Shown piece by piece: positions 12,576-53,159 of a stretch of 64,000 nt of DNA. The translations under genes were made by a program, and so were the position numbers. The first letter of the stretch is position 1; each line of letters opens with the position of its first letter. The notes under the pieces were generated by a model, which was given only the letters and a program-made list of their open reading frames with translations, was not told where the DNA came from and made no database searches. The stretch comes from an uncultured Bacteroidales bacterium (GTDB lineage: Bacteria > Bacteroidota > Bacteroidia > Bacteroidales > F082), in the NCBI GenBank assembly GCA_900317055.1, contig ONFF01000003.1, forward strand, positions 62,001 through 126,000, written 5' to 3'.

Positions 12576-12605
12576 TTGGGATAATCAATATATTTACTAA
12601 TTTTG
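12576..12605 (+). promoter_or_regulatory. Promoter of serine palmitoyltransferase
   Basis: TTGG at 12576-12579 (-33) and TAATTTTG at 12598-12605 (-7) are separated by 19 bases when counted from TTG. This is the canonical Bacteroidota primary-sigma arrangement. Confidence 0.7.
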
Positions 12606-12615
12606 TGGCTCGTTG

Positions 12616-12643
12616 TGTGAGACGCAAACATTGCGTCTCTACA
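12616..12643. repeat. 5' UTR hairpin of the GAGACG/CGTCTCTACA family
   Basis: GAGACGCAA and TTGCGTCTC pair around an ACA loop. The hairpin lies in the leader between the promoter and the start codon. A relative with a different inner sequence forms the hairpin at 57286-57314. Confidence 0.7.
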
Positions 12644-12683
12644 ACAATCAACAATTAAACAATCAACAATTAAACATATCTCA

Positions 12684-13943
12684 ATGGACATTTTCGAAAG
12701 AATATCAAAGGATTCCGGTGGCCCGATTGGGCAATACCGCGAACGCGCTGACGGTTATTTCGCATTCCCGCGTCTGGAAGGTGAACTTGGACCTCGCATG
12801 ACTTTCAACGGCAGAGAGGTGCTCTGCTGGAGTTTGAACAACTATTTGGGTCTGGCTAACCACCCCGAAATTCGTCGTGTGGATGCCGAAGCCGCCGCCA
12901 AATACGGCCTTGCTGCTCCTATGGGTGCCCGTATGATGACGGGTCACACCCGTATGCACGAGCATTTCGAGCACGAGTTGGCTGACTTCGAGAAGAAAGA
13001 AGCCGCCTATCTGTTCAACTTCGGTTACCAAGGCATCGTGTCGACCATCGATACCTTGACCAGCCCCCATGATGTCATTGTCTACGATAACGAAGCTCAT
13101 GCCTGCCTCTTGGATGGTATCCGTCTGCATATTGGCAACAAGTACAAGTACCGCCACAACAATATGGAAGACTTGGAAAAGAAGCTGAAGGTCGCCACTG
13201 AGGTGGTGGCCAAGACGGGTGGCGGCATCCTTGTCATTACCGAAGGCGTGTATGGCATGACGGGCGCTTTGGGCGATCTCGCCGGCATCGTGGCCCTGAA
13301 GAAGAAGTACAGCTTCCGCATTCTCATTGACGACGCCCACGGTTTCGGCGTGATGGGCCCAACAGGTCGCGGTACGTCAGAACACTTTAATGTGATGGAC
13401 GACATCGACATTTACATTGGAGCATACGCTAAGGCTATGGCCATCATCGGTGGCTTTGTGGCTGGACCGAAGTATGTCATTGAATATCTGCGCTATAATA
13501 TGCGTTCGCAGATGTATGCCAAGAGTTTGCCGTTAGCCATCGTGGAAGGCTGCGAGAAGCGTCTGGAAATCATCCGCAGCGCCGAGGGCGACGCCTTGCG
13601 TGCCCAACTGTGGAAGGTGACTCGCGCCTTGCAGAAGGGCTTCCGTGACCTGGGCTTCGACATTGGTCCCGCCGAGGCTTGCGTGACGCCGGTGCATGTG
13701 CAGGGCGATGTGGTACAAGCCACCAACATCGCCATGGACCTGCGCGAGAACTACAAGATTTTCTGTTCGGTCATCACCTATCCTGTCATCCCCAAGGGCA
13801 TGATTATCTTCCGCATCATCCCGACGGCGGCCCACACCATGGACGATGTCAACTACACTTTGAACGCCTTCGCCGAGGTGCGTCAGAAACTCGACAAGGG
13901 TTATTACGACGGCACCGAAGTCCCGAATATGCGCATCGAGTAA
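12684..13943 (+). CDS. spt: Serine palmitoyltransferase (alpha-oxoamine synthase family)
   Basis: PLP enzyme condensing L-serine with a long-chain acyl-CoA to 3-ketosphinganine, the first step of Bacteroidota sphingolipid synthesis. The 419-residue product shows SLNNYLGL, GARMMTGHTRMHEHFE, DDAHGFGVMGPTGRG and the PLP lysine (K250) in GAYAKAMAIIGGF. Family relatives include Kbl (glycine C-acetyltransferase) and BioF. The long N-terminal arm and the IGQYRERADGYFAFPR start favour the Spt-like branch common in Bacteroidales. Monocistronic: its own promoter is upstream and a terminator hairpin follows at 13969. Confidence 0.85.
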   Translation: MDIFERISKDSGGPIGQYRERADGYFAFPRLEGELGPRMTFNGREVLCWSLNNYLGLANHPEIRRVDAEAAAKYGLAAPMGARMMTGHTRMHEHFEHELADFEKKEAAYLFNFGYQGIVSTIDTLTSPHDVIVYDNEAHACLLDGIRLHIGNKYKYRHNNMEDLEKKLKVATEVVAKTGGGILVITEGVYGMTGALGDLAGIVALKKKYSFRILIDDAHGFGVMGPTGRGTSEHFNVMDDIDIYIGAYAKAMAIIGGFVAGPKYVIEYLRYNMRSQMYAKSLPLAIVEGCEKRLEIIRSAEGDALRAQLWKVTRALQKGFRDLGFDIGPAEACVTPVHVQGDVVQATNIAMDLRENYKIFCSVITYPVIPKGMIIFRIIPTAAHTMDDVNYTLNAFAEVRQKLDKGYYDGTEVPNMRIE

Positions 13944-23200: not shown

Positions 23201-25743
23201 GCGAGAAGATGGTGGTGACCTTCCCCGCCAACAACAAGGCCAAGGCTCTTGTCACGGTGGAAGCCAACGACAAGGTGTTGCAAACCATGTTGGTGGAGAA
23301 CCTCGGTGAGGAAGGCAAGGTGGAAATCACGACTACTGAGGAAATGATTCCGAATGTTTATGTCTATGTGGCCTTGATTCAGCCGCATGACGCCAACAAC
23401 GACCTGCCGATTCGTCTCTATGGTGTGGTACCCGTGAAGGTGGAAAACAAGAAACTGCAATTGCAGCCCAACATCCAAATCCCCGAAACGGCCAACACAA
23501 AGAAAAAGATTGATGTGAAGGTGAGCGAAGCCGCCGGACAAGCCATGACCTATACTTTGGCCATCGTCGACGAAGGTATCCTCGGCCTGACCAACTTCTC
23601 CACGCCGAATCCTTACGGTTACTTCAACAGCAAGCAGGCTTTGAGTGTGCGCACTTGGGACAACTACGCCAGCATTGTCGATGCGTTCAGCGGCGAGTTG
23701 GGCTCGGTCTACGCCATCGGTGGTGACGGTGTCCTCAACCAGGAAGTCACCTTAGACAAGCGCTTCAAGGCCTATGCAGTCACTTTAGGACCTTTCGAGT
23801 TGAAGGCTGGCGATGCCAACACCCACAGCTTCGAGGTGCCGCAATGCTCCGGTGCCTTGCGCTTTATGGTGGTGGCCAAGGGTAAAGGCAAGGCTTTCGG
23901 TTCATCCGACAAGCGTATGACCGTGGTCGACCCGATCAACCTTTATGCCTCCGCTCCGCGTGTGGTGGCTCCTGGCGATGAGCTTAATCTCAAGGTACAG
24001 GTGCAGGCTCCCACGATGAAGAACAAGACCTTGGAGGTCAAGTTCAACAATAAGAACCTCAACCCCGTGGATGCTTTGCCGACTTCAGTGAAGATTGATG
24101 GCAACGGTGAAGGTTTGGTGGCCGTCAGAACGACCATCCCCAAGACCTTGGGCAACGCTGAGCTGAATGTGTCGGTGACGGGTGAGGGTTACACCGCCGA
24201 GTCGTCGACGCAGATGCCTATCCGCATGCCTTACGCCGAGCGTCGCAACACTATTACGAAGGACATCGAGGCAGGTCAAACGGTGACTGTACCATTCAAC
24301 TTGGAGGGCATGGATGGCACGCAGCAAGGCAATGTCACCGTGTCATCGCTCTTGCCCATCGACCTCTTCGGTCGCATCGACTACCTGTTGGGTTATCCGC
24401 ATGGTTGCCTCGAACAGACGACCTCGAAGGCCTTCCCGCAGCTCTACCTGAACTATTTCATCCAACTTGATGAAAAGGCCAAGGAAGAGATGAAGAACAA
24501 TGTGGAGACAGCTATCACCAATTTGAAGTCGTACCAGAAGTCCGACAACTCGATGACCAACTGGCCTGGTGGCAATTACTCCAACGCTTGGACTGAGATT
24601 TATGCCCTGCATTTCTTGGTTGAGGCCAATAAGCAAGGCTACAATGTGCCGCAGTACTTCATTGACGGTCTGCTGAGCTATCAGGCCGACCGCGCTAAGC
24701 AGTGGAAGAACAACATCGACTACAAGTGGGGCGAGACCATCCAAGCTTACCGTCTCTTCGTGCTGGCCTTGGCTGGCAAGCCTGAGATGGGTGCCATGAA
24801 CCGTTTCAAGGAACTTGAGATGCATTATGACTTGACTAAGGCATTGTCTGCTGCCGCTTTTGCCCAGACGGGTAAGACCAGCATCGCGCAGAACCTGTTG
24901 CCCACCGTAACCGAGGGTCAGGTGATGTCAGACTACTACACATCCTATGGATCCGATATCCGCGACCTGGCCTTCTTGACCTATGCTCAGATGCTCTGCG
25001 ATGTCGATAATCAGACAGTTCAGAATAATGTCAACAATGTGTGTCGCATGATGAGCTCACGCCATTATGTGGACACCCAGTCGACAGCTTTCGCGCTCTT
25101 TGTCTTGGGTAAGTATGCCGAGAAGATGAATGTTGTCAATTCTGGTCTCTCTGCTACCGTCAAGGTGAACGGCGAGGAGCGTACGCTGAACACCAATATG
25201 GCTTCGGTAGGCTTTGGCTACACGCCGAAGTTGGGCGGCAACACGATCGAGATCAAGAACAACGGTGACCACAAGATGGTGGCCAACCTCTACACCAAGA
25301 CCTCGGTCGCCGAATACGATATGAACGAATCCGGCAACCTGATTAAGATGTCGGTGAACTACTTCGACAAGAGCGGTGCTTCTGCCAACTTGACTTCGTT
25401 GAATGCCGGTACCGACCTGCGCGTGCAGATCACGGTCCAGAACCCGAGCGAGTGGAAAGTCACCGAGCTGGCCTTGTCATACTACCTGCCTTCGGGTTGG
25501 GAGTTGGTCAACGACCGCTTGATGGGCGACATGACGGGCAACGAAGGTGCCAAGCACCTCGACCTGCGTGACGACCGCGCTTACTTCTACTTCGACCTCT
25601 ATCCTGGCGACAAGAAGACCTTCACGCTAAAGGTCAACGCCACCTACGAGGGCAACTACATGATTCCCGCCATCCGCTGCGAGGACATGTACAACGATGA
25701 GATTTATTACCAGATCCCGGCTCGTGGGTGTGTGGTGAAATGA
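20227..25743 (+). CDS. Bacterial alpha-2-macroglobulin lipoprotein with thioester
   Basis: Periplasmic protease-trapping protein of 1,838 residues. Lipoprotein signal with lipobox LPSC (Cys28). The order is N-terminal MG domains, an MG2-like region, the bait region, and the thioester domain. The thioester motif CLEQ is intact at residues 1394-1397 (GYPHGCLEQTTSKAF), so covalent trapping is possible. The C-terminal part is the receptor-binding-like domain. Bacterial macroglobulins usually sit beside pbpC and guard the periplasm after wall damage. Here pbpC lies 10.7 kb away, at 36411, with an accessory island in between. A hairpin ends the gene at 25766. Confidence 0.93.
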   Translation: MRTKQRMKKIGSIGLVVAMLLLCFLPSCGKKGTGGQNASFVERIQPINEALLPLLDSYTSGVVAAGEPIVVRFKNPETMKVKFGETIPAKAFQFTPALKGSAYWVDENTVGFQYDNIDKEQNYVCKFRVSDFVDCGSEQALEFGFGVRRQNLSLVAQQPICLSNETMNYNLRIAFAVPVDQDEAVKMFDEGFRKSHPVEMTYVGNNVYDFEIQNFERKSENYDVHVVLDGKGVDAKAKMERDLTIYAQGIFIPLAFDVDQSSDHATLFFSQPLKESQNLMGFITKDNNLGYKADIKGNKIDFYFDKSNLYRYQLDELKIGVNSGIRSDNGMVLQEDYEYALDLTEVQPKVRWTDDGVIIPNVDETTVYFDAICLNGVTLRIIRVFDDNILSFLQDNELTETYGVRKAGRLEKKVRLAIDNPYPNQWKTFPIKLSDYVKVEPGAMYQLSLNFGPADYTFASDEMRNAVVDNNDEKEANYWDGEGYDYKEYRYDGEYGDPNGYYYYNYVEKQKNIVVSDLAVTAKMGRNDLVDVFVYRISDAQPAAGAQVVAYNFQKQELSKGTVDGKGHLQLQCANRPAFVVATDKKGSKSVIKLNDGNALSYSRFNVSGEPVEKGVTAFAYSNRGVWRPGDDLQLNLMLNDLESSLPDDYPVVLEVIDANGRLYAKQVNTKPVNDIYCFTVPTNVSDETGLWTARFKVGTSTITKNLRVETVKPNRLEMKFDLPEVISLSRNERVNLNAKWLNGMKANGLKTEVDVQLRGGQTSFKEFPNYSFVNEMQSFEPQEISLFSGQLTAEGNTNVGFGPLEDVYAAQMMNGTFIVKVFEQGGDFSIASFTSKLSPYERYVGVDLPPTSSKYGSYYDTNKDWKFNIAMVNENGTACKSSVALDYALYKLDYYWWWSSEDEYSLQRYASGTYKAPYQNGSLTCNGTTSVTFNIPNDKWGSYLFIVNDKQGRHTFAKVINFDWGYGHSSSASGAPAQLSLKTTAESYEVGEKMVVTFPANNKAKALVTVEANDKVLQTMLVENLGEEGKVEITTTEEMIPNVYVYVALIQPHDANNDLPIRLYGVVPVKVENKKLQLQPNIQIPETANTKKKIDVKVSEAAGQAMTYTLAIVDEGILGLTNFSTPNPYGYFNSKQALSVRTWDNYASIVDAFSGELGSVYAIGGDGVLNQEVTLDKRFKAYAVTLGPFELKAGDANTHSFEVPQCSGALRFMVVAKGKGKAFGSSDKRMTVVDPINLYASAPRVVAPGDELNLKVQVQAPTMKNKTLEVKFNNKNLNPVDALPTSVKIDGNGEGLVAVRTTIPKTLGNAELNVSVTGEGYTAESSTQMPIRMPYAERRNTITKDIEAGQTVTVPFNLEGMDGTQQGNVTVSSLLPIDLFGRIDYLLGYPHGCLEQTTSKAFPQLYLNYFIQLDEKAKEEMKNNVETAITNLKSYQKSDNSMTNWPGGNYSNAWTEIYALHFLVEANKQGYNVPQYFIDGLLSYQADRAKQWKNNIDYKWGETIQAYRLFVLALAGKPEMGAMNRFKELEMHYDLTKALSAAAFAQTGKTSIAQNLLPTVTEGQVMSDYYTSYGSDIRDLAFLTYAQMLCDVDNQTVQNNVNNVCRMMSSRHYVDTQSTAFALFVLGKYAEKMNVVNSGLSATVKVNGEERTLNTNMASVGFGYTPKLGGNTIEIKNNGDHKMVANLYTKTSVAEYDMNESGNLIKMSVNYFDKSGASANLTSLNAGTDLRVQITVQNPSEWKVTELALSYYLPSGWELVNDRLMGDMTGNEGAKHLDLRDDRAYFYFDLYPGDKKTFTLKVNATYEGNYMIPAIRCEDMYNDEIYYQIPARGCVVK

Positions 25744-25765
25744 TTAGTAACGAAATGAACATCGT

Positions 25766-25791
25766 AGGGGCGGGCATGAGTGTCCGCCCCT
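25766..25791. terminator. Strong hairpin after macroglobulin gene (REP-like)
   Basis: AGGGGCGG and CCGCCCCT pair, extended by CA/TG and one G-U around a TGAG loop. No long T run follows. The sequence resembles the widespread GGGGCGG...CCGCCCC intergenic palindromes, so it may be a repeat acting as a terminator. It marks the left end of the low-G+C island. Confidence 0.6.
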
Positions 25792-25895
25792 GTTGTTTTG
25801 GAAAAAGCGAGTTTTATAATTTGCCAAGATTTCGGGGCCAACAAGCATTTTGATGAAATAAATTTCGGGGTCAGCATGATTTTTCTTTGAAAAAA

Positions 25896-25927
25896 TTTGC
25901 GGGATAGAAATATTAATACTACTTTTG
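25896..25927 (+). promoter_or_regulatory. Promoter of DUF4143 ATPase gene
   Basis: TTTG at 25896-25899 and TACTTTTG at 25920-25927 are 20 bases apart, a textbook Bacteroidota promoter. Transcription would start near 25934, which favours the ATG at 25953 over the one at 25941. Confidence 0.75.
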
Positions 25928-25952
25928 CGTCGGATTTTCAATGGGTTATATT

Positions 25953-27287
25953 ATGGATAAAGTGTTTAAGAGAAAAGTATACCATCAATTGTTGGAATGG
26001 AAAGAAACCGAAAATGGTCGTACAGCCATTTTGGTGGAAGGGGCACGGCGCGTGGGGAAGTCCACGATTGTGGAACTGTTCGCGAAACAAGAGTACGAGA
26101 CCTATATCCTTATTGATTTCAATAAAGCAAGTAAGGCAATTATCGCATTATGGGATGACTTGAATGATTTGAATGTGATTTTCCTCAAATTGCAACAAGA
26201 ATATCGGGTGACACTTCATGAGCGCAAGTCTGTCATCGTTTTTGATGAGGTGCAGCATTGCCCGAAAGCACGCCAGGCCATCAAATATTTGGTGCAAGAC
26301 GGCCGTTACGATTATATCGAAACAGGATCGCTAATCAGCATTCACAAGAACACAAAGGATATTACCATCCCGAGCGAGGAGGATAGCATAACGATGTATC
26401 CGATGGATTATGAGGAGTTTCGTTGGGCAATGGGTGATACGGCCTCCATCCCGTTGCTGAAGCAGCAGTTTGAGAAACGCATTTCATTGGGCGATGACAT
26501 CGCTCGCTCCAAGATGCGCGACCTTCGTTTGTATATGTTGGTAGGTGGTATGCCGCAAGCAGTAAATACTTATTTGGACACGAATAATCTGGGCTTGGTA
26601 GATAAAACCAAACGAGGAATTATAAAGTTGTATCTTCAGGATTTTCAAAAAATCGACGCTACTGGAAATGCAGAACGTCTGTTTAAGAATATCCCTGCGC
26701 AATTAAGCAATAATGCTTCGCGGTATCAGCCATATACCGTGATTGGTCAACAGACGGAGAGCAAGATGGCGGAGTTGTTGCAGGACTTGGAAGAGAGTAA
26801 AACGGTGTTGTTTTGCCATCATTGCACAGACCCGAATGTGGGACTGTCATTGAATAAAGATTTGAGCCGATACAAAATGTTTGTGGCCGATACAGGCTTG
26901 TTCGTTACACTTGCGTTTTGGGACAAACGTTACACCGACAATATCATTTATGATAAGCTGTTGAGCGACAAGCTGGAGGCTAATTTGGGCTATGTGTACG
27001 AGAATTTAGTGGCACAAATGCTGGCTTCGGCTGGAAATGAATTGTATTACTACACTTTTGCCAAGGATGCGAAACATAATTACGAGATAGACTTCATATT
27101 GTCTCGAGGCAATAAGATTTGTCCGATAGAAGTTAAGTCGTCGGGATATAAGACCCACAAGTCCTTGGATGCTTTTTCTGAGAAATTTTCCTCGCGTGTG
27201 GGTGAGCGTTATCTTGTTTATACCAAAGACTTACGCAAGGATGGTGAAGCAACGCTGTTGCCGGTTTATATGACAGGGTTGATATAA
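25953..27287 (+). CDS. AAA ATPase with C-terminal DUF4143
   Basis: About 444 residues. The N-terminal AAA_14 domain has a P-loop GARRVGKST (residues 30-38, Lys36) and a Walker B VIVFDEVQHC. The C-terminal DUF4143 part carries EIDFILSRGNKICPIEVKSSG, a degenerate PD-(D/E)xK-like arrangement. These ATPases are frequent, multicopy and mobile in Bacteroidales; no biochemical function is settled, though they are often in variable or defence regions. It has its own promoter and a 385-base gap follows, so it is probably a separate unit from the helicase downstream. Confidence 0.85.
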   Translation: MDKVFKRKVYHQLLEWKETENGRTAILVEGARRVGKSTIVELFAKQEYETYILIDFNKASKAIIALWDDLNDLNVIFLKLQQEYRVTLHERKSVIVFDEVQHCPKARQAIKYLVQDGRYDYIETGSLISIHKNTKDITIPSEEDSITMYPMDYEEFRWAMGDTASIPLLKQQFEKRISLGDDIARSKMRDLRLYMLVGGMPQAVNTYLDTNNLGLVDKTKRGIIKLYLQDFQKIDATGNAERLFKNIPAQLSNNASRYQPYTVIGQQTESKMAELLQDLEESKTVLFCHHCTDPNVGLSLNKDLSRYKMFVADTGLFVTLAFWDKRYTDNIIYDKLLSDKLEANLGYVYENLVAQMLASAGNELYYYTFAKDAKHNYEIDFILSRGNKICPIEVKSSGYKTHKSLDAFSEKFSSRVGERYLVYTKDLRKDGEATLLPVYMTGLI

Positions 27288-27672
27288 GGATTGTTTAGGG
27301 AAAGAAGTTGAAGGATTTTGCTGGGTGAGGGTTGGTATTATATTGTAAACCCAGTTTGGGCGAATCCTTTGCATTTACGACAAGGTTTATCACATCGGTG
27401 CCTCACTGAAGGATTTTGGGAAAAGATGGTTTGCGTATGGATGAATGGAGATTGATACTGATGCGTTATTGCCGAAAATGTAGCACAAGGAAAAAAGTAA
27501 CGCTTGGTATTTACTTAGGCATAACCAACTGGAAACGATGCTAGTTTGATTAAGTATACTGACTTGGAGTTTTTATTTGTTTCTTTTCCAAAACTATTGG
27601 ATTGGATTGAGAAAAATTGCTTAATATTGCAATTTCAAATAATTAATTGGGATAAAGAACTGATTTAGTTGT
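27288..27672. other. 385-bp gap with a degenerate REP fragment
   Basis: No gene seen. CCAGTTTGGGCGAAT at 27351-27365 is identical to 35494-35508, next to the transposase. TAATATTG at 27622-27629 with TTGG at 27597 could be a weak promoter for the helicase. The rest looks like AT-rich filler. Confidence 0.5.
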
Positions 27673-30600
27673 ATGGGACAAAAGCTGCACAATAGAATTG
27701 AAACATGGAAGAAACTTTTACTTGATTTTGGCAGAAGGAACCGTCTTATAAACTTCAAGGATGGTAAAAGGTCGAATGTGCATATTGTTTCGCCCTCATA
27801 CGAATTGATATTTGATAAAATTGCTGTAAAGGAGAGTCCTATTGTTTTCCCCTATTCAAAAAAAGTGCTCATTGATGATGACGGGAACGAAATCCATGAA
27901 ACAGTGATTGAGGGTGATGTGAAAACGAACAAAACTGTTTCTGAATTGCAAAAGACTTTGAAGGTGCTTAGATATAGGGCTAATACCTCTATTGAAGAAC
28001 AAGGCATCAATATCCTGTTTCTTGCTTTTGGAATGTTAAAATGGCGTGAAAATGATGGGTCTACTGAAATTTTTTTATCGCCAATTATTCTTGTCCCCGT
28101 AAAATTGATAATTGAATCTATCACTTCACCCTACAAACTTGTACCACACGAAGATGAAATAGTTATTAATCCTACACTGTTGTACAAATTGGAAAATGAT
28201 TTTGGAATCATTCTTCCAGAATTTGATGGTACGCAGGATTCTATTTCTGAATATTTTGACAAGTGCCAAAAGATAGTTGAAAATAAAGGGTGGACAATTG
28301 AAAGAGATGTCAATCTTTCCAATCTTTCTTTCTTGAAGATTAATATGTACAAAGACCTTGAAAGAAACGAGGAAAGACTTTGTAATAATCCGATAGTGTC
28401 AGCTATTGCAGGTGAAGGCGAACCTATTACATTGGATAAAGACATTAGCAACTATGATCACGATAAAAAGGAACGCCCAATAGATGTTTTTCAAGTTGTT
28501 GATGCAGATTCGAGTCAACAAGATGCTATACTTTTGTCAAAACAAGGTGTTAGTTTTGTGTTGCAAGGTCCACCTGGAACAGGAAAGAGTCAGACAATTA
28601 CCAACATTATATCTGAAGCATTGGCAGACGGTAAGAAAGTCTTGTTTGTTTCAGAAAAAATGGCCGCACTTCAAGTTGTGTATAATCGACTGGCAAATGT
28701 TGGATTGTCAGATTTTTGTATGACCCTCCATAGCCATAAAGCCAATAAAAAAGCAGTCTTGCAAGAACTGGCTAATTCAATTTCTATTGAGAGAAAGAAG
28801 GTCAAGGAAGAAGCGTTGGCTCAATTGGAGATTTTGCAGCGGAAGCGCGAAGAATTGAATGAATACCAAAATGAACTGCATACGCCTTGTTCTGCGTTGA
28901 AGACTACCGTTTTTGAAATTAATGGCAAATTGGCGAAACTTAATGCCGTACCAGATGTGGTTTTTCCGATTCCTGAAGTGGATAAGATCGATACACAGGA
29001 GTTAAACGATAAAGTTTACTTGCTGCGGGAATTGGAAAAAACCATAGGAAAACGAAGTGAAGATTACAAAGATAATGTTTGGAGAGGTGCAACTATAGTT
29101 TTTTTGTCAAACGAATTAAGACACGATATCGATTCAAATATATCTGAACTTGTTCCTTTATTAACCACGTTAAATGACAAAGTCTCTTCGTGTTGTACTT
29201 CATTGGAATTGGGCTTCTCTCATTCTATTGAAGGAATTAATCAGTTGTTGGCTTTTTTGAAAGTGGCAAAGGATTCACCACTTATCCCTGAAAGATGGCT
29301 GACTGATGATGTTGAGAAACATTTAGCAACAATTAATGAATGTAGGAAGGAAACAACACTCATTAAGAATAACTACAAAGAAATTTCCGATAGATTTAAT
29401 CAACAAATATTTGATGTTGATTGTAGAACGCAGAAAACAAAACTTATAGAATGTAAGAACAAAGCGTGTTTTGTGTTGCGTTTCACTGATGATAGTATCC
29501 ATATTGCAGACCTTATCAGGTCAAGGCAACAACTCCTTGATGTATCTACAGATATTGAGAAAATTTTCGTTCGAGCATCTTCATTGGCTGAAAAAGTCGG
29601 TTTGGATATTCCCTACAATTTGAATGGACTTAATTTGTTTGTTGAGATACTTAAGGTATTGATTCAGATAAAAGAGATAAAACCTACTCTTAATTGGTTT
29701 GATAAGGAAAAGTTCAATCAGTTGAAGCAATCATTGGAAACTCGAAAGAAAGTACATGATGATTATTCATCACAATTGCAAGAGGTTCAAAATGAATTTG
29801 ATAAAGATATTCTGTCTATTGATTGTTATCCGATTTTGCAACGGTTTAGGGGTGAGTATGCTACATTCTTTAGATTTCTAAACAAACAGTATAAAACTGA
29901 TATAAGAGCCATTCAAGGTTTTTCAAGAACGGGAAAAAGGCTAAGTTATCATGATGCAATTGATACATTGCTTCAACTCAAAAAACTTGCGGATGACAAA
30001 AAAACGATTGAAGGATTGTCTGAACAATGTAAGGATGACTACGGAAACTATTATTGTGGTGTTAATACCCAATGGCCTGTTTTGCAAAACGTTGTAGAGG
30101 CTTTTGATAAACTGTTTATAATCTTGGACAAACCTTCCGATAGACTTCGAGACTTGATTATAAATGGAGAATTGCCAGTTGAGGAAGTACTCCATTTTAT
30201 CGAATTTTTTGAACGAATAAGAATAAGAGATAAGTATGATTTGGCTAATAACCTTCTGAAAGAGAATGTTGAAAATAATAATCATTATAGGTCTGTGCTC
30301 GAGAAAATCAGCAAAGGGTATGACCAATCGAAAGACTTTGTAGATGCTTTTTCAGGATTGTTGTCTTTAAGGAAAGAAGAAACAACATACGAAACTTTGT
30401 CGGTTGAACTTGACAAACTTGAATTATACCAAGAGGCATTAAAATCAATGAAAAAGAGGCAAAATGAGTTGTCCTCAATGTTTGGAAAGTATTATTTGGG
30501 ATTGGATACCGATTGGGATGGGGTTTGTCAAGCATTGACATTTGCGGAGAACCTAAAAAAATGTGTTGAAGATTGTTCATTGTCAAGGAATTGCGTCAAT

Positions 30601-33153
30601 AAGATATGTACAGAGCCGGAGAGCGTAGAGTTCAGTGGCATTATGTTGGGAGAAATCTCTGAAATCAAATCAAAAATAGAGGAACCATTATCATGGTTTT
30701 GCGCTTTGTTTGAGGATGCAAGCAGGTTTAATATAATGAATCTTATTGACTTTGCCAATTATTTATCATCGTGTAAAAACAACAAACATCTGCTTGAAGA
30801 ATGGGTGGATTATTGTTCAAACATGAAAAAATGTGTGGATGCTGGATTACAGCCGTTTGTGGAGCAGATTGAGACCAAAGAGATAGAAACAGACTATATA
30901 GCCGAAGCGTATCTAAAGCGGTTTTATCGTTTATGGCTTGATAAAATGATGCTTCAATTTCCTGCGGTTAGAGATTTTAGGGGAAGAATACAAGAGCAAA
31001 ATATCCATGAGTTTTGCAAATTGGATACTGAACAGTTTAGAATTGCGCAAGCAAGGGTGCGTGAACGGCTTGTTAATCGTATCCCGGACTTTAATTCAAT
31101 TACTTCATCAAGGGATGAAATTGGTATTTTGAAAAGAGAGTTGGCTAAACAACGTCGTATTATGCCTCTACGTAAACTGTTTATGTCGATACCAAACTTG
31201 ATTTCAACTTTGAGACCATGTTTTATGATGTCGCCTTTATCTGTTAGTGTATTCCTTGAAGCCCGAAGTTATGAATTTGATTTGGTTGTTTTTGATGAGG
31301 CTTCTCAGGTTCATACGGAAGATGCCATCGGAGCCATTATGAGAGGAAAGCAAGTGATTATTGTAGGTGATACGAAACAGTTGCCTCCTACAAATTTCTT
31401 TGCTACATCATTGAATGATGAGGATTTTGATGTTGACATAATAGAAGAAGAAAAAGATGAAGAAGCAGGAGCGTACGAATCTATTCTTGAAGAAGCGGTT
31501 ACGGTGTTGCCAGAAAGGAGTTTGCGTTGGCATTATCGTAGTCGGGACGAACATCTTATCGCTTTTTCCAACATAAAAATATACAACGGGTCACTTGTTA
31601 CTTTCCCATCGGCAATTGAAAAGGCTCCAGATATAGGAGTTGAATATATCCATGTTACGAATGGCGTATATGACAGAAGTGGGAAGCGAAACAATATGAT
31701 AGAGGCAAAGCGTGTTGCAGAGTTGGTTTTTGAACATTTCAAGAAGCATCCTGAAAGGTCGCTTGGTGTTGTGACTTTTAGCGAGGCACAACAAAACGCT
31801 GTTGATGCAGCAATCAGACAGATGCGGCTTTCCAATGGTTCAATGGAAAGGTTCTTCACAGAAGACAAGGAAGAACCGTTCTTTATCAAGAACCTTGAAA
31901 ATGTACAGGGTGACGAGCGCGACACTATCATTTTTAGTATTGGCTATGCCAAAGATAGTCGCGGCATTATGTATATGAATTTTGGGCCTTTAAGTCGTGA
32001 CGGAGGGTATAGAAGATTAAATGTCGCTATAACTCGTGCGAAATATAATGTCAAACTTGTCGGTTCAATTGTCGCAACCGACATAGACCTTGATAAAACA
32101 TCCGCCGAAGGCGTGAAATTATTGCGTTCATACATTGAATATGCACAACAAGGCATTGCTGCATTGGAAAAAGAAATTCATTATAATTATGGTTTGGATT
32201 TCGATTCTCCTTTTGAAGAAGCGGTCTATGACTTTTTGTCTTCTAAAGGATATGAAGTTGTAACACAAGTAGGATGTTCTGGTTTCAGGATTGATATGGC
32301 GATAAAGCATCCTACACAAAGTGGCAAATTTGCTATCGGGATAGAATGTGATGGAGCCATGTATCATAGTTCAAGGACAGCGCGGGAAAGAGATCGTTTG
32401 CGCCAAACGGTTTTGGAAGATATGGGATGGAACATTTATCGGATATGGTCAACAGATTGGATTAAGAACCAAAAATCGGAAGAAGAAAAGTTGATTGAAG
32501 CAATTGAAAAAGCACTTTCAGGAATTGTAATCGAAGAGCCATTAGAATCGTTATTGACTCAGATTGATGACAATAGTTTGGAGACTATGGAATTGGAAGA
32601 ATCGGTTGAGTCTCAAAAGATGGGGAATGAGGGGTATGGATTTGATACATATCAATGGGCAAATATAGATGATTTTTGGCAAGAATCCCCAAAAGACAAA
32701 ATTAGAAAAATCATAGAATCTCAACAACCAATTCATTTTGAAGCATTGTGCAAAATACTTGCTCCTCTATGGGGTAATCGTAAAGCGACTAATATGATAC
32801 GTAAAAATGTCAATTATTATCTAAAGCTTTATTTAGGTGAAAATGTTGAACAAAAAGATGGCTTTGTTACACTAAAAGGTTTTGATAACTTAAGGGTAAG
32901 AGTGCCTGAAACAACGGAAGATGTAAGGCCGATTGAATACATTAGCAAAGATGAATTGGCTTTGGCTATGAAAACTATAGCGGAAAAGAGTTATGGCATT
33001 ACACTGGATGGTTTGATTACTGAAACGGCTCGCGCTTTTGGATTCAAGCGTACTGGAGATAAAATATCTACCACTTTGAGGATTGTGTATGAGAATATGT
33101 TGGAGAGAAATGTTGTAAAAGAAATTGATGGAAAGGTGTGCGTAACAAAATAA
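27673..33153 (+). CDS. DUF4011-SF1 helicase-nuclease (REase_MTES_1575/DUF3320 type)
   Basis: Giant single-chain protein of 1,826 residues. DUF4011-like start RIETWKKLLLDFGRRNRLINF. SF1 helicase core split by a long coiled insert: P-loop GPPGTGKS 299-306; then about 890 residues rich in K/E helices; Walker B FDEASQ 1207-1212; GDTKQLPP 1232-1239; motif VI region LNVAITRAK 1449-1457. A Vsr-like nuclease domain follows: E1515, FRIDMAIK with D1541, IECDGAMYH with E1558 and D1560. A DUF3320-like C terminus of about 250 residues ends the protein. Such proteins occur in defence islands and fit a sense-and-cut role, but the target is not known. Strong AT bias sets it apart from neighbours. Confidence 0.9.
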   Translation: MGQKLHNRIETWKKLLLDFGRRNRLINFKDGKRSNVHIVSPSYELIFDKIAVKESPIVFPYSKKVLIDDDGNEIHETVIEGDVKTNKTVSELQKTLKVLRYRANTSIEEQGINILFLAFGMLKWRENDGSTEIFLSPIILVPVKLIIESITSPYKLVPHEDEIVINPTLLYKLENDFGIILPEFDGTQDSISEYFDKCQKIVENKGWTIERDVNLSNLSFLKINMYKDLERNEERLCNNPIVSAIAGEGEPITLDKDISNYDHDKKERPIDVFQVVDADSSQQDAILLSKQGVSFVLQGPPGTGKSQTITNIISEALADGKKVLFVSEKMAALQVVYNRLANVGLSDFCMTLHSHKANKKAVLQELANSISIERKKVKEEALAQLEILQRKREELNEYQNELHTPCSALKTTVFEINGKLAKLNAVPDVVFPIPEVDKIDTQELNDKVYLLRELEKTIGKRSEDYKDNVWRGATIVFLSNELRHDIDSNISELVPLLTTLNDKVSSCCTSLELGFSHSIEGINQLLAFLKVAKDSPLIPERWLTDDVEKHLATINECRKETTLIKNNYKEISDRFNQQIFDVDCRTQKTKLIECKNKACFVLRFTDDSIHIADLIRSRQQLLDVSTDIEKIFVRASSLAEKVGLDIPYNLNGLNLFVEILKVLIQIKEIKPTLNWFDKEKFNQLKQSLETRKKVHDDYSSQLQEVQNEFDKDILSIDCYPILQRFRGEYATFFRFLNKQYKTDIRAIQGFSRTGKRLSYHDAIDTLLQLKKLADDKKTIEGLSEQCKDDYGNYYCGVNTQWPVLQNVVEAFDKLFIILDKPSDRLRDLIINGELPVEEVLHFIEFFERIRIRDKYDLANNLLKENVENNNHYRSVLEKISKGYDQSKDFVDAFSGLLSLRKEETTYETLSVELDKLELYQEALKSMKKRQNELSSMFGKYYLGLDTDWDGVCQALTFAENLKKCVEDCSLSRNCVNKICTEPESVEFSGIMLGEISEIKSKIEEPLSWFCALFEDASRFNIMNLIDFANYLSSCKNNKHLLEEWVDYCSNMKKCVDAGLQPFVEQIETKEIETDYIAEAYLKRFYRLWLDKMMLQFPAVRDFRGRIQEQNIHEFCKLDTEQFRIAQARVRERLVNRIPDFNSITSSRDEIGILKRELAKQRRIMPLRKLFMSIPNLISTLRPCFMMSPLSVSVFLEARSYEFDLVVFDEASQVHTEDAIGAIMRGKQVIIVGDTKQLPPTNFFATSLNDEDFDVDIIEEEKDEEAGAYESILEEAVTVLPERSLRWHYRSRDEHLIAFSNIKIYNGSLVTFPSAIEKAPDIGVEYIHVTNGVYDRSGKRNNMIEAKRVAELVFEHFKKHPERSLGVVTFSEAQQNAVDAAIRQMRLSNGSMERFFTEDKEEPFFIKNLENVQGDERDTIIFSIGYAKDSRGIMYMNFGPLSRDGGYRRLNVAITRAKYNVKLVGSIVATDIDLDKTSAEGVKLLRSYIEYAQQGIAALEKEIHYNYGLDFDSPFEEAVYDFLSSKGYEVVTQVGCSGFRIDMAIKHPTQSGKFAIGIECDGAMYHSSRTARERDRLRQTVLEDMGWNIYRIWSTDWIKNQKSEEEKLIEAIEKALSGIVIEEPLESLLTQIDDNSLETMELEESVESQKMGNEGYGFDTYQWANIDDFWQESPKDKIRKIIESQQPIHFEALCKILAPLWGNRKATNMIRKNVNYYLKLYLGENVEQKDGFVTLKGFDNLRVRVPETTEDVRPIEYISKDELALAMKTIAEKSYGITLDGLITETARAFGFKRTGDKISTTLRIVYENMLERNVVKEIDGKVCVTK

Positions 33154-33236
33154 TGAATTTTATTGCATATAACGATATTAAGTGTCGAATGGGAAATGAG
33201 TTGGATGAGGAATTAAGAATGAATAAAACAAATTAA
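33153..33236 (+). CDS. Small 27-codon ORF coupled to helicase gene
   Basis: The ATG overlaps the helicase stop (TAATG). It runs for 27 codons to a TAA at 33234-33236, 12 bases before the ATPase gene. The predicted peptide is MNFIAYNDIKCRMGNELDEE followed by LRMNKTN. It has no recognisable domain. It may be a real small subunit, or a device that keeps ribosomes coupled between helicase and ATPase. Could be chance. Confidence 0.35.
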   Translation: MNFIAYNDIKCRMGNELDEELRMNKTN

Positions 33237-33248
33237 ATAAGAATTAAT

Positions 33249-34622
33249 ATGAGACTTAAACAATTTATTGGGAAAGGTGTCAGAGGATATATGAATTTTG
33301 ACATCAATTTTAGAGAAAGTGTCACCTTCTTGATCGGAATAAATGGTTCTGGTAAGACAACGGTATTAAAACTGTTGTCAGGTCTATTGACCCCTTCTTT
33401 TATTGATTTGACACAAATTGAGTATGGTGAGATATGCTTGGTCTGCGATAAACTATCAGACTCTTCTCAAATTGTCATAAGTTGTAAACGAAGCGAGGGG
33501 AGACTAACATTAGATTATTGGGATTCATTGAATAGAAAGCACATATCTAATGAGTTTAGTATTATGGTGAATCTGATAAGCAAGAATAGAGTTGAGATGG
33601 AAATGATGAATTGGGATAGGATTAATCATTCAATGATGGAATTCGAAGAGACAGAGGTTGTTCATAAAATCAAAGAATTGCGTACTCCAATTATTTTAGG
33701 ACTGAATAGAAGAATCGTAGAAATTAATAAATTGGGGTTTCTTGAGCATGATTACTATGGACCAAGGAGAAAAAAGAGTCTTGATATGATGTTTGATGCT
33801 GTAGATGATGCTCTAAGTGATATTCAAGACATGCTCTATGATATTGTCAGACAAAACGCCCGTAGTCAAGCATCCATTGCGGATGATTTTAGGAAAAAGG
33901 TTTTTTCTGAATCATTTAAGGTCACCAAATCAGATTCAATACCTGTCATTCAATATCATGAAGAATTGGAATTATTAGAACAAAGAAAAGAAAAGCTAAA
34001 TCAGGCAATTTCAAATCTTGGAATAAGAGATTTGTCGTCTCAGTTTTCTGAGTTTTTTGAAAGTATTCAAGAAACTTTAGAAACATTGGAAAAAACTTCT
34101 TCATTGGATATGAACCAGCGTACAACAAATCCAGATTATATAAATGCACTATTAGATTGGATGATAAATAGTGCTCAAATTGAGAAAATTGACAAGATAA
34201 TAAAATATGCGAATGACTATTCTAATAGTATACAAAGACTTAAAGATCCAATATTAAGATTTAAGAATAGTGCAAATCTTTTTTTTAAGGAAGGTAAAAA
34301 GGAGATAGAAATCAATGAACAAGGAGATATAGTTGTTGTCGTAAAAGGATTACGAAAGAAAAACACAATATACGAATTATCTTCGGGAGAAAAACAATTG
34401 ATTGTTATGCTTGCACATTTGGTTTTTTATAAAAAAAACCGTCGTTCACCTGTCTTTATTATTGATGAACCAGAATTATCATTGCATTTGAGCTGGCAAG
34501 AGATTTTCGTAGATGCGGTGTTAAAAGCTAGTCCAGAAACACAGTTTATAATGGCAACACACGCCCCTGCTATTTTAGCAAAACCAGAAAGAAAAGAATG
34601 GTGTGAGGATTTATCAAAATAG
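33249..34622 (+). CDS. ABC-type ATPase, AriA-like (PARIS candidate)
   Basis: 457 residues with an SMC/ABC-like ATPase head split by a coiled region. P-loop GINGSGKTT at 30-38 (Lys36), signature LSSGEKQ at 377-383, Walker B IIDEPE with D406 and E407, H-loop His438 in THAP. The middle (about residues 150-340) is long and helical. The next gene, 3 bases on, encodes a Toprim/DUF4435 protein. An AAA15/21-type ATPase followed by a DUF4435 nuclease is the two-gene layout of PARIS, in which AriA holds AriB inactive until a phage trigger appears. Sizes match roughly. Other ATPase-Toprim systems cannot be excluded. Confidence 0.75.
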   Translation: MRLKQFIGKGVRGYMNFDINFRESVTFLIGINGSGKTTVLKLLSGLLTPSFIDLTQIEYGEICLVCDKLSDSSQIVISCKRSEGRLTLDYWDSLNRKHISNEFSIMVNLISKNRVEMEMMNWDRINHSMMEFEETEVVHKIKELRTPIILGLNRRIVEINKLGFLEHDYYGPRRKKSLDMMFDAVDDALSDIQDMLYDIVRQNARSQASIADDFRKKVFSESFKVTKSDSIPVIQYHEELELLEQRKEKLNQAISNLGIRDLSSQFSEFFESIQETLETLEKTSSLDMNQRTTNPDYINALLDWMINSAQIEKIDKIIKYANDYSNSIQRLKDPILRFKNSANLFFKEGKKEIEINEQGDIVVVVKGLRKKNTIYELSSGEKQLIVMLAHLVFYKKNRRSPVFIIDEPELSLHLSWQEIFVDAVLKASPETQFIMATHAPAILAKPERKEWCEDLSK

Positions 34623-34625
34623 ATT

Positions 34626-35486
34626 ATGGCATTAGAGTTTTCAACAGAAACGCGTCAAGCCGCTACAGTTTTTACGGAATACAGAAACTCCATTGATATC
34701 TATACCGAAGACTGTGTTAAAGATAGAGAGTTTTATGTGAAACTTCTAAAACGGCTATTAGACAATACTGATATTGTTATAAATGACATTTATCCTATAG
34801 GTTGTAGAAGAACTGTAATTGATTGTTGTCAGAATGATACGGATAATCGAAGAAAGAAGCTGTATATAGTTGACGGTGATATATATTTACAGTACAAAGA
34901 GAAAGAGAATATTGAGAACTTGTATGTGTTAGATGCCTATTGTATTGAAAATTATATGATATGTGATGACGCTATTTGCAACACAGCATACATCTTTCAT
35001 GCACGAGATTCATATGAAAATGTAAAGAATGCTTTGAATATTCCTCAAGAATTGGATGATATTGCAGAACCATTGATAAACTTGTTTTTCTTTTATTCAA
35101 TACAAATGGAATGTTATGGGCAGTTTAGTTTGTGGAATATTGATGCATATATGAATAAGTCGGCAAAAACATTAGATAAGAACAAAATAGATAATAGAAT
35201 AAATGAGATAAAATGTGGATTGATTCGTAATGGAATAACTGAAAATCAAATTGATGGATTGTTAAATAGCCGAAAGGCATTGTTTCCATACAATCGAGAA
35301 ACTTTGATAAAAATCGTTTCAGGAAAAGACTTTTTAATACCATATTTTAAATATCATATTGATAAAAAATTGAATTGTACTCTTAATTTGCCTAAAGAAG
35401 CTTGGAAATTCAATTTAGTTGATAAATGCGATATTGACAAATTGAATCCGTTAAAAGAAGCCATTCTTTCTGCGTATTTTGATTAA
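34626..35486 (+). CDS. Toprim/DUF4435 nuclease, AriB-like (PARIS candidate)
   Basis: 286 residues. The N-terminal half has the three acidic sites expected of a Toprim centre: E28 in IYTEDCVKDREFY, D83 and D85 in YIVDGD, and E108 in DAYCIENYM. The C-terminal half is helical with no domain I recognise. In PARIS the DUF4435 partner AriB is the toxic effector and has been reported to cleave tRNA. The gene starts 3 bases after the ATPase stop (tag att ATG), so the two are translationally linked. It is followed directly by REP palindromes. Confidence 0.72.
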   Translation: MALEFSTETRQAATVFTEYRNSIDIYTEDCVKDREFYVKLLKRLLDNTDIVINDIYPIGCRRTVIDCCQNDTDNRRKKLYIVDGDIYLQYKEKENIENLYVLDAYCIENYMICDDAICNTAYIFHARDSYENVKNALNIPQELDDIAEPLINLFFFYSIQMECYGQFSLWNIDAYMNKSAKTLDKNKIDNRINEIKCGLIRNGITENQIDGLLNSRKALFPYNRETLIKIVSGKDFLIPYFKYHIDKKLNCTLNLPKEAWKFNLVDKCDIDKLNPLKEAILSAYFD

Positions 35487-35493
35487 AGTGGTT

Positions 35494-35552
35494 CCAGTTT
35501 GGGCGAATTTGCAATTCGCCCACAGTGAGTATAAGAATTTGTAATTCGAAAA
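35494..35552. repeat. REP palindromes, left flank of RAYT
   Basis: Contains two palindromes, GGGCGAATT-TGC-AATTCGCCC and CGAATT-style GAATT-TGT-AATTCG. Bases 35496-35529 are repeated without change at 36334-36367 on the other side of the transposase (34-bp direct repeat). Confidence 0.85.
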
Positions 35553-35580
35553 CTACTAACCAAGATAAGAAGATAATAGG

Positions 35581-36114
35581 ATGAACTTGACAAGAGTATT
35601 GTATTTCACGACTTCAACGGTGATTGATTGGGTTGACATCTTCACGCGACCAAGTTATAGGCACATCATTGTTGATTCACTTTCCTATTGCCAATCTCAT
35701 AAGGGATTGATTATCTATGCTTGGGTGTTGATGTCGAATCACCTTCACATGATTGTTGATACCAACGACGATACTACAGTGGGCGATGTGTTGCGTGATT
35801 TCAAGAAGTTTACGAACAAAAAGCTATTAAAAGCATTGGAACAAGACGAACATGAAAGCCGGCGCGAATGGCTTCTCGACAGGTTTTGGTTTGCAGGGGC
35901 AAACGATAAAGGTATCAAGAACTACAGGTTTTGGCAAGAAGGAAACCATGTCGAGGAAATCTATACTATGGAATTCCTGATGCAAAAGTTGAACTACATT
36001 CACCAAAATCCTGTCAGAGCTGAAATTGTGGCGAGGCCAGAGGATTATTTGTATAGTTTGGCGTTGAATTATGCGGGCGAAAAAGGATTGTTGAATGTTG
36101 AATTGATTAGATGA
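35581..36114 (+). CDS. REP-associated tyrosine transposase (RAYT, Y1_Tnp)
   Basis: 177-residue HUH endonuclease of the IS200/REP family. The HUH pair is H54 and H56 in SNHLHMIVD, and the catalytic tyrosine is Y139 in LNYIHQNPVRAE. RAYTs nick REP palindromes and are thought to spread them. Here the gene is enclosed by REPs sharing a core ATTTGYAAT, so enzyme and substrate are side by side. It is a domesticated single-copy type of gene rather than a full insertion sequence. It sits at the right end of the accessory island. Confidence 0.9.
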   Translation: MNLTRVLYFTTSTVIDWVDIFTRPSYRHIIVDSLSYCQSHKGLIIYAWVLMSNHLHMIVDTNDDTTVGDVLRDFKKFTNKKLLKALEQDEHESRREWLLDRFWFAGANDKGIKNYRFWQEGNHVEEIYTMEFLMQKLNYIHQNPVRAEIVARPEDYLYSLALNYAGEKGLLNVELIR

Positions 36115-36127
36115 GCAATGATGAATC

Positions 36128-36389
36128 GGATTACAAATCCTTATACTCGACACAGCCGCATTGCAAATGCAGCTGAACACACTTCCAAGTGTGACTTTGG
36201 TTTGGGCGAGAATCGGATTACAAATCCTTATACTCGACTCAGCCGCATTGCAAATGCGGCTGAACTCCAAACGTATTCGGTTTTCAGTTCTCGCATTGCA
36301 AATGTGGCAGATCTTTTTTCCAAGTGTGGCTTTAGTTTGGGCGAATTTGCAATTCGCCCACAGTGAGACACGAATTTGTAATTCGGAAA
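36128..36389. repeat. REP cluster, right flank of RAYT
   Basis: Series of palindromes: GGATT-ACA-AATCC at 36128-36140 and again at 36215-36227; CAGCCGCATT-GCA-AATGC(A)GCTG at 36153-36175 and a perfect version at 36240-36262; GCATTGCAAATG at about 36293-36304; then the 34-bp copy at 36334-36367 and CGAATT-TGT-AATTCG to 36385. Two ~87-base units in tandem start at 36124 and 36211. No gene is present; long open frames here are made of repeat words. Confidence 0.85.
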
Positions 36390-36410
36390 TCAAAATCAAA
36401 GAGGAATGAG

Positions 36411-53147: not shown

Positions 53148-53159
53148 GTGTCCAAAAAG

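What the first reader, a model, noticed from the sequence alone, without database searches (positions are those of the whole stretch)
25744..36410. Accessory island of 10.7 kb splits alpha-2-macroglobulin from pbpC
The macroglobulin and pbpC genes are usually neighbours. Here they are separated by an AT-rich block with helicase-nuclease, ATPase-Toprim pair, DUF4143 ATPase and RAYT. All are types found in defence islands. Base composition differs visibly (21/60 G+C at 30001-30060 against 29/60 at 24001-24060).
Basis: partly seen in the sequence, partly recalled or inferred. Interest (0 to 1): 0.8.

Follow-up and report, generated by a model that had tools for sequence, protein, structure and literature searches.

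The report
Swappable phage-defence island beside pbpC
In this Bacteroidales-type bacterium, a slot between two ordinary cell-envelope genes holds a changing set of likely phage-defence genes, and a small hairpin repeat beside a transposase gene marks a point where different gene sets have repeatedly been joined.

Summary
Exactly 10,667 nt of AT-rich DNA (25744-36410) separate an alpha-2-macroglobulin gene (a2m) from pbpC. In 47 of 65 measurable relatives of the genus the gap is 238 nt or less; in 18 of 65 it holds 0.9-11.8 kb of cargo that differs between genomes. This is a core-gene hotspot in which I found no integrase. The window's cargo is a DUF4143 ATPase, a ProA/Hhe-like helicase-nuclease, an ATPase-DUF4435 pair that passes the published PARIS detection rule, and a RAYT with its REP hairpins (a REPtron). 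The first three are separable cassettes; the RAYT unit is an older resident of the pbpC side. Exchanged islands have sharp edges: at the a2m stop codon, and about 22 codons into pbpC, so the pbpC membrane anchor travels with the island. And the left edge of the REP is a recurrent joint: 26 of 136 left homology endpoints fall within 8 nt of it against 1.2 expected, with 0 of 183 right endpoints. By a 25-nt pattern its stem subtype occurs only in this hotspot: 18 of 18 copies here, 0 of 51 elsewhere. Whether RAYT makes the joints is untested.

The parts
20227..25743 (+). alpha-2-macroglobulin gene (left core flank); its 3' end carries stop TGA (AAATGA), shared with L036, L043 and L055, where most printed relatives have AAGTAA
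25744..27496 (+). left cassette: a2m 3' hairpin plus DUF4143 ATPase; blastn pieces that include the end of a2m are 94-98% identical to L036 (to 27482), L043 (to 27303) and L055 (to 27496)
25896..25927 (+). Bacteroidetes-type promoter-like site TTTG-N20-TANNTTTG (motif recalled) upstream of the DUF4143 gene
   Evidence: 1 hit on the + strand of the gap, shuffle mean 0.22
25941..27287 (+). AAA_14 ATPase with DUF4143 and a PD-(D/E)xK-like C-terminal motif (448 aa; PADLOC candidate PDC-S01)
27603..33154 (+). ProA cassette as shared with L058 (27603-33138, 91% nt) and L060 (27603-33154, 89%); L076: 27577-33154, 90%. Homology starts 70-96 nt before the gene and ends at or just before its stop codon
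27673..33153 (+). ProA/Hhe-like DUF4011-SF1 helicase-MTES_1575 (Vsr-like) nuclease, 1826 aa
33249..34622 (+). AriA-like ABC-type ATPase (AAA_15/AAA_21), 457 aa; Walker A, Walker B and LSSGE signature present
34626..35486 (+). AriB-like DUF4435 protein, 286 aa; E28, D33, D83, D85, E108 invariant in the 10 aligned DUF4435 proteins
35493..35562 (+). REP1: two consecutive hairpins (GGGCGAATT-TGC-AATTCGCCC and GAATT-TGT-AATTC); its left edge is the recurrent joint
35581..36114 (+). RAYT (REP-associated tyrosine transposase), 177 aa, with NHLH, WQ and YIHQNP
   Evidence: subclass motifs from PMC6006769
36213..36266 (-). inverted REP-like unit downstream of RAYT (a shorter piece at 36126-36148, also minus strand)
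36334..36389 (+). REP2, direct repeat of REP1 (93% over 57 columns), about 22 nt before the pbpC start
36411..38726 (+). pbpC (right core flank); its first ~66 nt (cytoplasmic tail and membrane anchor) co-travel with the right block of the island

Best explanation
The a2m/pbpC junction of this genus is a chromosomal hotspot for defence-type cassettes without a recognisable integrase. SHOWN: the cargo differs between genomes; the same cassettes recur in different combinations; exchanged islands have sharp edges at the a2m stop codon and about 22 codons into pbpC; a RAYT with private REP hairpins sits before pbpC, and the left edge of the REP is a recurrent junction with different cassettes, including truncated genes and a pbpC remnant. 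INFERRED: whole islands move between species by recombination in the conserved flanks; new combinations arise by deletion, duplication or joining at the REP hairpin, either because it stalls replication or because RAYT nicks it; selection keeps the cargo because it acts against phages. In the window the most likely actions are that the ProA/Hhe-like protein is a stand-alone helicase-nuclease acting on invading DNA, and that the ATPase-DUF4435 pair works like PARIS (the ATPase holds the Toprim nuclease inactive until a phage anti-restriction protein releases it to cut tRNA and stop growth). The DUF4143 ATPase is a common accessory family with no assigned role here.
For: Census: 18 of 65 relatives occupied, 47 of 65 at 238 nt or less. 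Cargo of occupied relatives includes type I RM, YhcG/DUF1016 nucleases, a TIR protein, an HD-CE/HATPase protein, DUF4062+SLFN_AlbA_2 and PDC-S31/S39 candidates; no integrase among the proteins scanned with Pfam (20 of 58 ORFs of 12 occupied relatives) and no tRNA at the site. Left block 98-99% identical (first 150 nt) between window, L036, L043 and L055, while the preceding ~300 nt of a2m are 81-86% identical in the five pairs other than window-L036 (97%) (profile). pbpC nt 1-66 averages 89% identity in 12 pairs that share the right block against 64% in 801 pairs that do not, at similar body identity (82% and 80%; 1137 pairs compared in all). REP: 22 of 25 genus-wide matches lie in the hotspot; stem subtype 18 of 18 against 0 of 51; endpoints 26 of 136 against 1.2 expected, right-endpoint control 0 of 183 against 1.7. 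Gene-cutting joints: DUF4062 at about codon 36 in L162 (about 3 nt from the REP foot), DUF4062 at about codon 5 in L058 and L060 (18 nt left of the REP as defined), pbpC after about 7 nt in L051 (1 nt from the REP). Cassette independence: the 3 close ProA relatives outside the window lack the ATPase pair, and the 2 closest pair relatives have no ProA in the fetched 19 and 15 kb. PARIS rule passed: AAA_15 77.4 (needs 32), AAA_21 81.5 (27), DUF4435 45.0 (27) (rule read in PMC9122126).
Against: No function was tested; every defence label comes from profiles. ProA scores 1383 against an NCBIfam cut-off of 1500, Hhe 934 against 2000. The DUF4435 protein matched no AriB chain in the PDB and its fold model was poor (pLDDT 40.5). 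At least two relatives used are metagenome bins by record title, so chimeric joins at a conserved ~60-nt repeat cannot be excluded. The 26 endpoint hits come from 13 pairs that are not independent; at 15 nt the right-endpoint control is 5 against 3.1. Six of the 18 occupied relatives show no REP. In L035 the pbpC fragment joins a REP that has lost its first hairpin, so that joint is inside the REP, not at its left edge. REP-like matches off the hotspot exist: 3 of 25 (76-81% identical), and in G000 three bare cores, two of them exact. RAYT itself is at this locus in only 5 of 99 genomes, and a RAYT remnant beside the REP beat shuffles only in L056 of five tested.
Confidence: 0.8

Rival explanations
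1. A single integrative element (ICE, prophage or phage satellite) inserted between a2m and pbpC and later decayed.
For: Sharp edges, AT-rich foreign composition, and one ORF6N (phage-type) domain in one relative (L051).
Against: No integrase, phage structural or conjugation gene among the 20 (of 58) relatives' ORFs scanned nor among the 5 in the window. No tRNA near. Edges differ between islands, and cargo sets are combinatorial. The search for related loci, which finds close relatives only, found none of ProA or of the ATPase in viral contigs.
Confidence: 0.05
2. The REP left edge looks like a joint only because the REP-to-pbpC stretch is an old conserved block and anything to its left is simply non-homologous; no special recombination occurs there.
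For: The right block is 88-99% identical among islands of one type, so its left end is by definition where homology stops. Pairs are not independent.
Against: The joint lies at or within about 20 nt of the hairpin foot for about ten different left partners. Some joints cut inside genes (DUF4062 at two places, pbpC after 7 nt). Genomes sharing the same a2m 3' flank (L034, L035, L153) have different short filler before the REP. Right-endpoint control 0 of 183 within 8 nt.
Confidence: 0.3
3. ProA, the ATPase-DUF4435 pair and the DUF4143 ATPase form one multi-gene defence system.
For: Same strand; the ATPase gene begins 95 nt after ProA.
Against: ProA occurs without the pair in L058, L060 and L076, where a TPR protein follows instead; the pair occurs without ProA in L096 and L097; DUF4143 occurs with other partners in L036, L043 and L055.
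Confidence: 0.04
4. Chimeric assembly of metagenome bins creates the apparent mosaic.
For: Two named relatives are metagenome bins (L074, L075); the REP is conserved between species and could bridge contigs.
Against: At the a2m edge only about 10-15 nt before the stop are shared by genomes that carry the same left block, too short to bridge species in assembly (my judgement). The same joints recur in separate genomes (L058 and L060). The window lies in a 210-kb contig of a 98.7% complete, 0.9% contaminated genome.
Confidence: 0.1

Closest known systems
Core defence hotspots cDHS1/cDHS2 of Pseudomonas aeruginosa (PMC10250203, passages read)
   Same: Defence cargo of variable content between fixed core genes, not obviously part of a mobile element; flank-mediated transfer suggested there
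   Different: Other flanks (a2m/pbpC) and a Bacteroidales-type genus; here a RAYT-REP unit marks the joint, and the 5' end of a flanking core gene is exchanged with the island
[quoted passage not shown]
   Same: Gene turnover without recognisable mobile elements; transfer by recombination in the flanks proposed
   Different: Here the edges seen are at the last codons of a2m and about codon 22 of pbpC, and an internal hairpin is a second recurrent breakpoint
PARIS (AriA-AriB; PMC9122126 and PMC12409363, passages read)
   Same: Two adjacent genes, ABC-type ATPase plus DUF4435; passes the published profile rule; invariant acidic residues E28, D83, D85, E108
   Different: Distant in sequence (best PDB match is AriA, but only over chain residues 362-429; none to AriB); trigger and target unknown
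ProA and Hhe anti-phage proteins (NCBIfam NF058533 and NF042953; PADLOC PDC-S37)
   Same: DUF4011-SF1 helicase-MTES_1575 nuclease architecture
   Different: Below both NCBIfam cut-offs; close relatives carry a downstream TPR protein that the window lacks
REPtron, TnpA_Y1 subclass 2.6 of Bacteroidetes (PMC6006769, passages read)
   Same: NHLH, WQ, YIHQNP motifs, 177 aa (179 in the paper's table), flanked by hairpins
   Different: The matching REP subtype is almost confined to one locus and sits at defence-cassette joints

Membership tests
Integrase-free core defence hotspot | Same core flanks with variable or empty content across genomes | tested here: met
   18 of 65 occupied, 47 of 65 at 238 nt or less
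Integrase-free core defence hotspot | Cargo of defence-type genes | tested here: met
   Pfam/PADLOC hits to RM, YhcG, TIR, PDC-S01/S02/S31/S37/S39 and Ari-like genes; enrichment over background was not computed
Integrase-free core defence hotspot | No integrase or mobile-element backbone | tested here: met
   5 window proteins and 20 of 58 listed ORFs of relatives scanned with Pfam; only RAYT. Islands L154, L158, L159, L160, L162 were not scanned
PARIS | Adjacent genes with AAA_15 >= 32 or AAA_21 >= 27 bits and DUF4435 >= 27 bits (rule of PMC9122126) | tested here: met
   77.4, 81.5 and 45.0 bits; 3 nt apart
PARIS | Toprim catalytic acidic residues (E26 in AriB) | tested here: met
   E28, D83, D85, E108 invariant in 10 aligned DUF4435 proteins; equivalence to E26 is inferred from position, no AriB sequence was aligned
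PARIS | AriB structure | tested here: inconclusive
   No PDB sequence match to AriB; model pLDDT 40.5, so no fold search was run
PARIS | Abortive response to an anti-restriction protein such as Ocr | not testable with these tools
   needs a plaque assay
ProA (NF058533) | NCBIfam score >= 1500 | tested here: not met
   1383 bits
Hhe (NF042953) | NCBIfam score >= 2000 | tested here: not met
   934 bits
REPtron / TnpA_REP subclass 2.6 | HuH + W + Y motifs NH[LIV]H, WQ, YIH[QN]NP | tested here: met
   NHLH, WQ and YIHQNP read in the translation (HLH also); motif table
REPtron / TnpA_REP subclass 2.6 | Gene flanked by hairpin REPs | tested here: met
   REP1, inverted REP', REP2; a similar layout around the 66% RAYT of G091
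REPtron / TnpA_REP subclass 2.6 | Copies of the cognate REP elsewhere in the genome | tested here: inconclusive
   Same stem subtype not found off the hotspot with the 25-nt pattern (18 on, 0 off), a related GGATT-stem subtype at 51 other places; but 3 of 25 longer matches are off-locus and G000 has bare cores off-locus

The most novel reading that the evidence does not exclude
The REPtron before pbpC is a one-ended cassette-assembly device. The RAYT (or a replication fork stalled at its hairpin) opens the left foot of its private REP and joins it to other DNA, so the a2m/pbpC slot gains, deletes and tandem-duplicates defence cassettes at a fixed point, somewhat like an integron but using a single-strand HuH transposase. 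Finished islands then spread between species by exchange that also swaps the pbpC membrane anchor. This would be a host role for a RAYT.
Probability: 0.15. Interest if true: 0.85.

Novelty: new variant of a known kind. Interest (0 to 1): 0.5.

Why it matters
How core defence hotspots are built is left as future work in the cDHS paper (PMC10250203, passage). This locus offers a concrete joint (the REP hairpin foot), near-empty and occupied sites in one genus, and a testable candidate enzyme. It also shows a core gene's membrane anchor being exchanged as a by-product of island traffic. RAYTs are described as mostly vertically inherited genes with an uncharacterised benefit to the host (PMC6006769, passage), so a link to defence turnover would be a useful lead.

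Tried and rejected
One defence operon: rejected because the cassettes occur apart. Integrative element or prophage: disfavoured. RAYT as part of the newly arrived island: rejected, because close relatives have RAYT as the only cassette in the gap (G063, G057), RAYT plus a partial pbpC duplicate (G061), or only its REP remains (G074). A decayed RAYT next to the REP in YhcG-type islands looked likely by eye but did not beat shuffles in the four tested (scores 26-30, shuffled maxima 35-45); L056 did (55 against 38). REP as an ordinary dispersed repeat: rejected for this subtype, with the off-locus exceptions told above. The single-sequence fold of the DUF4435 protein failed (pLDDT 40.5), so no fold search was made. 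The PDB search with DUF4435 gave three sequences, all anthrax lethal factor constructs, over the same 69-residue stretch (best E 3.6e-4), which I take as chance and did not follow. The search for related loci with ProA gave 5 loci in genome contigs and none in viral contigs; with the ATPase, none in viral contigs. On plasmids ProA had only partial matches, none covering 80% of the query in one place. One narrow paper search for ProA by name gave none. and detail that is not used in the argument was left out.
Full report
Observation. The a2m gene ends at 25743 and pbpC begins at 36411, leaving 10,667 nt. G+C falls from 0.49-0.55 in the neighbouring 1-kb bins to 0.32-0.44 across the block, and GC3 from 0.65-0.71 in the flanking genes to 0.26-0.32 in ProA, the ATPase and DUF4435; DUF4143 and RAYT are intermediate at 0.51 and 0.49. 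No tRNA lies near: the nearest of 4 RNA genes found in the window is the tmRNA at 53159.

Genes. 25941-27287: AAA_14+DUF4143, PADLOC candidate PDC-S01. 27673-33153: DUF4011, AAA_11, AAA_12, MTES_1575 and a sub-threshold DUF3320; NCBIfam ProA 1383 bits (cut-off 1500), Hhe 934 (cut-off 2000), PADLOC PDC-S37 1510 bits. 33249-34622 and 34626-35486: AAA_15/AAA_21 plus DUF4435, PADLOC AriA/AriB among many weaker ATPase matches. 35581-36114: RAYT, NF047646 95.9 bits (cut-off 80). The pair meets the detection rule printed in PMC9122126 (passages read). Acidic residues E28, D83, D85 and E108 of the DUF4435 protein are invariant in the 10 aligned proteins.

Empty and occupied sites. The genus set holds 99 genomes, the window's own included. 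I fetched the pbpC upstream region of 71 relatives; two more (G003, G068) had only pbpC fragments and were not fetched. The gap was measurable in 65: 47 have 238 nt or less, 14 of these negative (start of pbpC extrapolated from the alignment), and 18 have 895-11,770 nt. In the six others the contig ended or no a2m end was found in the fetched stretch. G074 (a2m and pbpC 99% identical to the window) has a 238-nt gap. Of 58 ORFs of 70 aa or more listed in 12 occupied relatives, I scanned 20 with Pfam and 10 with PADLOC, chosen to cover the recurrent and the larger ones: type I RM genes, YhcG/DUF1016 nucleases, DUF4062, SLFN_AlbA_2, a TIR protein, an HD-CE/HATPase protein, DUF4209 (PDC-S39), DUF2971 (PDC-S31), a TPR protein, ORF6N, and five without a Pfam hit at E<=0.001; no integrase.

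Cassettes are independent. A DUF4143 gene stands directly after a2m in the window and in six occupied relatives (L036, L043, L055, L058, L059, L158); in L058, L059 and L158 it is a 62% relative. The four genus copies of 98% or more identity, the window's included, are all at this site. ProA-like proteins of 88% or more are in 4 of 99 genomes: window, G065 and G059 at this site, G055 elsewhere. In the three non-window cases a 461-aa TPR protein follows ProA (after an inserted ~1.2 kb in G065); the window has the ATPase-DUF4435 pair instead. The pair's ATPase is in 1 of 99 genus genomes at E<=1e-30, the window's own, and in 11 of 393 order genomes at E<=1e-15, own included. Its two closest relatives outside (G408, 55% and full length; G153, a shorter 308-aa ORF) keep the DUF4435 partner, with no ProA in the 19 and 15 kb fetched.

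Sharp edges. In the window, L036, L043 and L055 the first 150 nt after the a2m stop are 98-99% identical, while the preceding ~300 nt of a2m are 81-86% identical in five of the six pairs (window-L036: 97%) (profile). On the right, the first 66 nt of pbpC (tail and membrane anchor) average 89% identity in 12 pairs that share the right block and 64% in 801 pairs that do not, at similar pbpC body identity (82% and 80%); pairs of 92% body identity or more were left out of this comparison. So the exchanged unit runs from the a2m stop codon to about codon 22 of pbpC.

The REP joint. A 73-nt element at 35490-35562 forms two hairpins. Of 25 genus-wide matches in 16 of 99 genomes, 22 lie in this hotspot, in the pbpC orientation; three lie elsewhere (G037, G052, G075; 76-81% identical). 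A 25-nt pattern has 69 matches in 29 of 99 genomes and none for the reversed control pattern: the 18 in the hotspot all have the AATT arm, the 51 elsewhere the AATC arm at the discriminating base (recounted, Fisher p 6e-17). In G000 the bare 15-nt core with up to 1 mismatch also occurs at three other places. Comparing islands, the 100 nt right of the REP are 96-99% identical in 15 of 15 YhcG-type pairs and 88-96% in 10 of 10 RAYT-type pairs, while the 30 nt on its left are 33-50% identical in 23 of these 25 pairs (exceptions L058/L060 100%, L035/L153 67%). Left endpoints of homology fall within 8 nt of a REP left edge in 26 of 136 cases against 1.2 expected; right endpoints 0 of 183 against 1.7 (within 15 nt: 27 against 2.2, and 5 against 3.1) (13 REP-bearing islands, 13 pairs, not independent; L034 and L155 not in this test). 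Joints that cut genes: in L162 DUF4062 stops at about codon 36, next to the REP foot; in L058 and L060 it stops at about codon 5, followed by 18 nt that also precede REP2 copies and then the REP; in L051 a pbpC start of about 7 nt abuts the REP. In L035 a pbpC copy of about 236 codons joins a REP that has lost its first hairpin, followed by a second RAYT and the full pbpC.

RAYT. The protein has NHLH, WQ and YIHQNP and is 177 aa, fitting subclass 2.6 of PMC6006769 (Bacteroidetes, atypical hairpins; passages read). It is in 6 of 99 genomes at E<=1e-20, five at this site and a 66% relative in G091 with its own hairpins. [quoted passage not shown] This makes RAYT a candidate for the joints, but RAYT is absent from most islands today, and replication stalling at the hairpin could leave similar joints.

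What is known. Hotspots without integrases and with flank recombination (PMC5635113, passages) and core defence hotspots (PMC10250203, passages) are described. Two searches for an a2m/pbpC or rumen Bacteroidales hotspot gave no papers. Of 21 papers, ten were listed, and none has a title or abstract on RAYTs building defence islands; I did not open the rest. Searches covered open-licence papers only.

Verdict. A real, variable, defence-type hotspot without a recognised integrase; the window's island is one of 19 occupied sites measured. The new element is the locus-specific REP hairpin as a recurrent joint, plus exchange of the pbpC anchor. Function of the cargo and the cause of the joints are inferred.

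Noticed in passing
L035 (G061:C2:1-7073), about 3295-4008: Tandem partial duplicate: a pbpC 5' fragment (about 236 codons) ends at a truncated REP, followed by a second RAYT and full pbpC; the first RAYT copy matches in two pieces.
   Followed up: partly
L060, L058, L076: A 461-aa TPR protein with an N-terminal hydrophobic stretch follows ProA; its start overlaps the ProA stop in L060 and L076. It may be a partner of ProA that the window has lost.
   Followed up: partly
L058 about 12380-13633: Between ProA and the TPR gene sits an inserted ~1.1 kb with two small ORFs, followed by a 69% copy of ProA residues 1789-1824: another insertion that carries a gene 3' end.
   Followed up: no
L036, L043, L058, L059, L062, L051, upstream of pbpC or of the REP: Tandem 12-nt repeats (variants of gagggartaaat) directly before the pbpC start or, in L051, before a 7-nt pbpC remnant.
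   Followed up: no
L188, L194, L195, L196: A dispersed GGATT-stem REP sits beside similar genes in G000, G057, G074 and G083, so it seems inherited in place, unlike the hotspot subtype.
   Followed up: partly
L069-L071, L073, L170-L172, L175-L178, L180-L182: In 14 more distant relatives pbpC appears to start 10-16 nt inside the end of a2m (start extrapolated from the alignment), an overlapping pair that the islands break.
   Followed up: partly
G000:C13:12836-14161 and others: DUF4143 ATPases are multi-copy in this genus: 48 of 99 genomes at E<=1e-150, 6 matches in G065.
   Followed up: no
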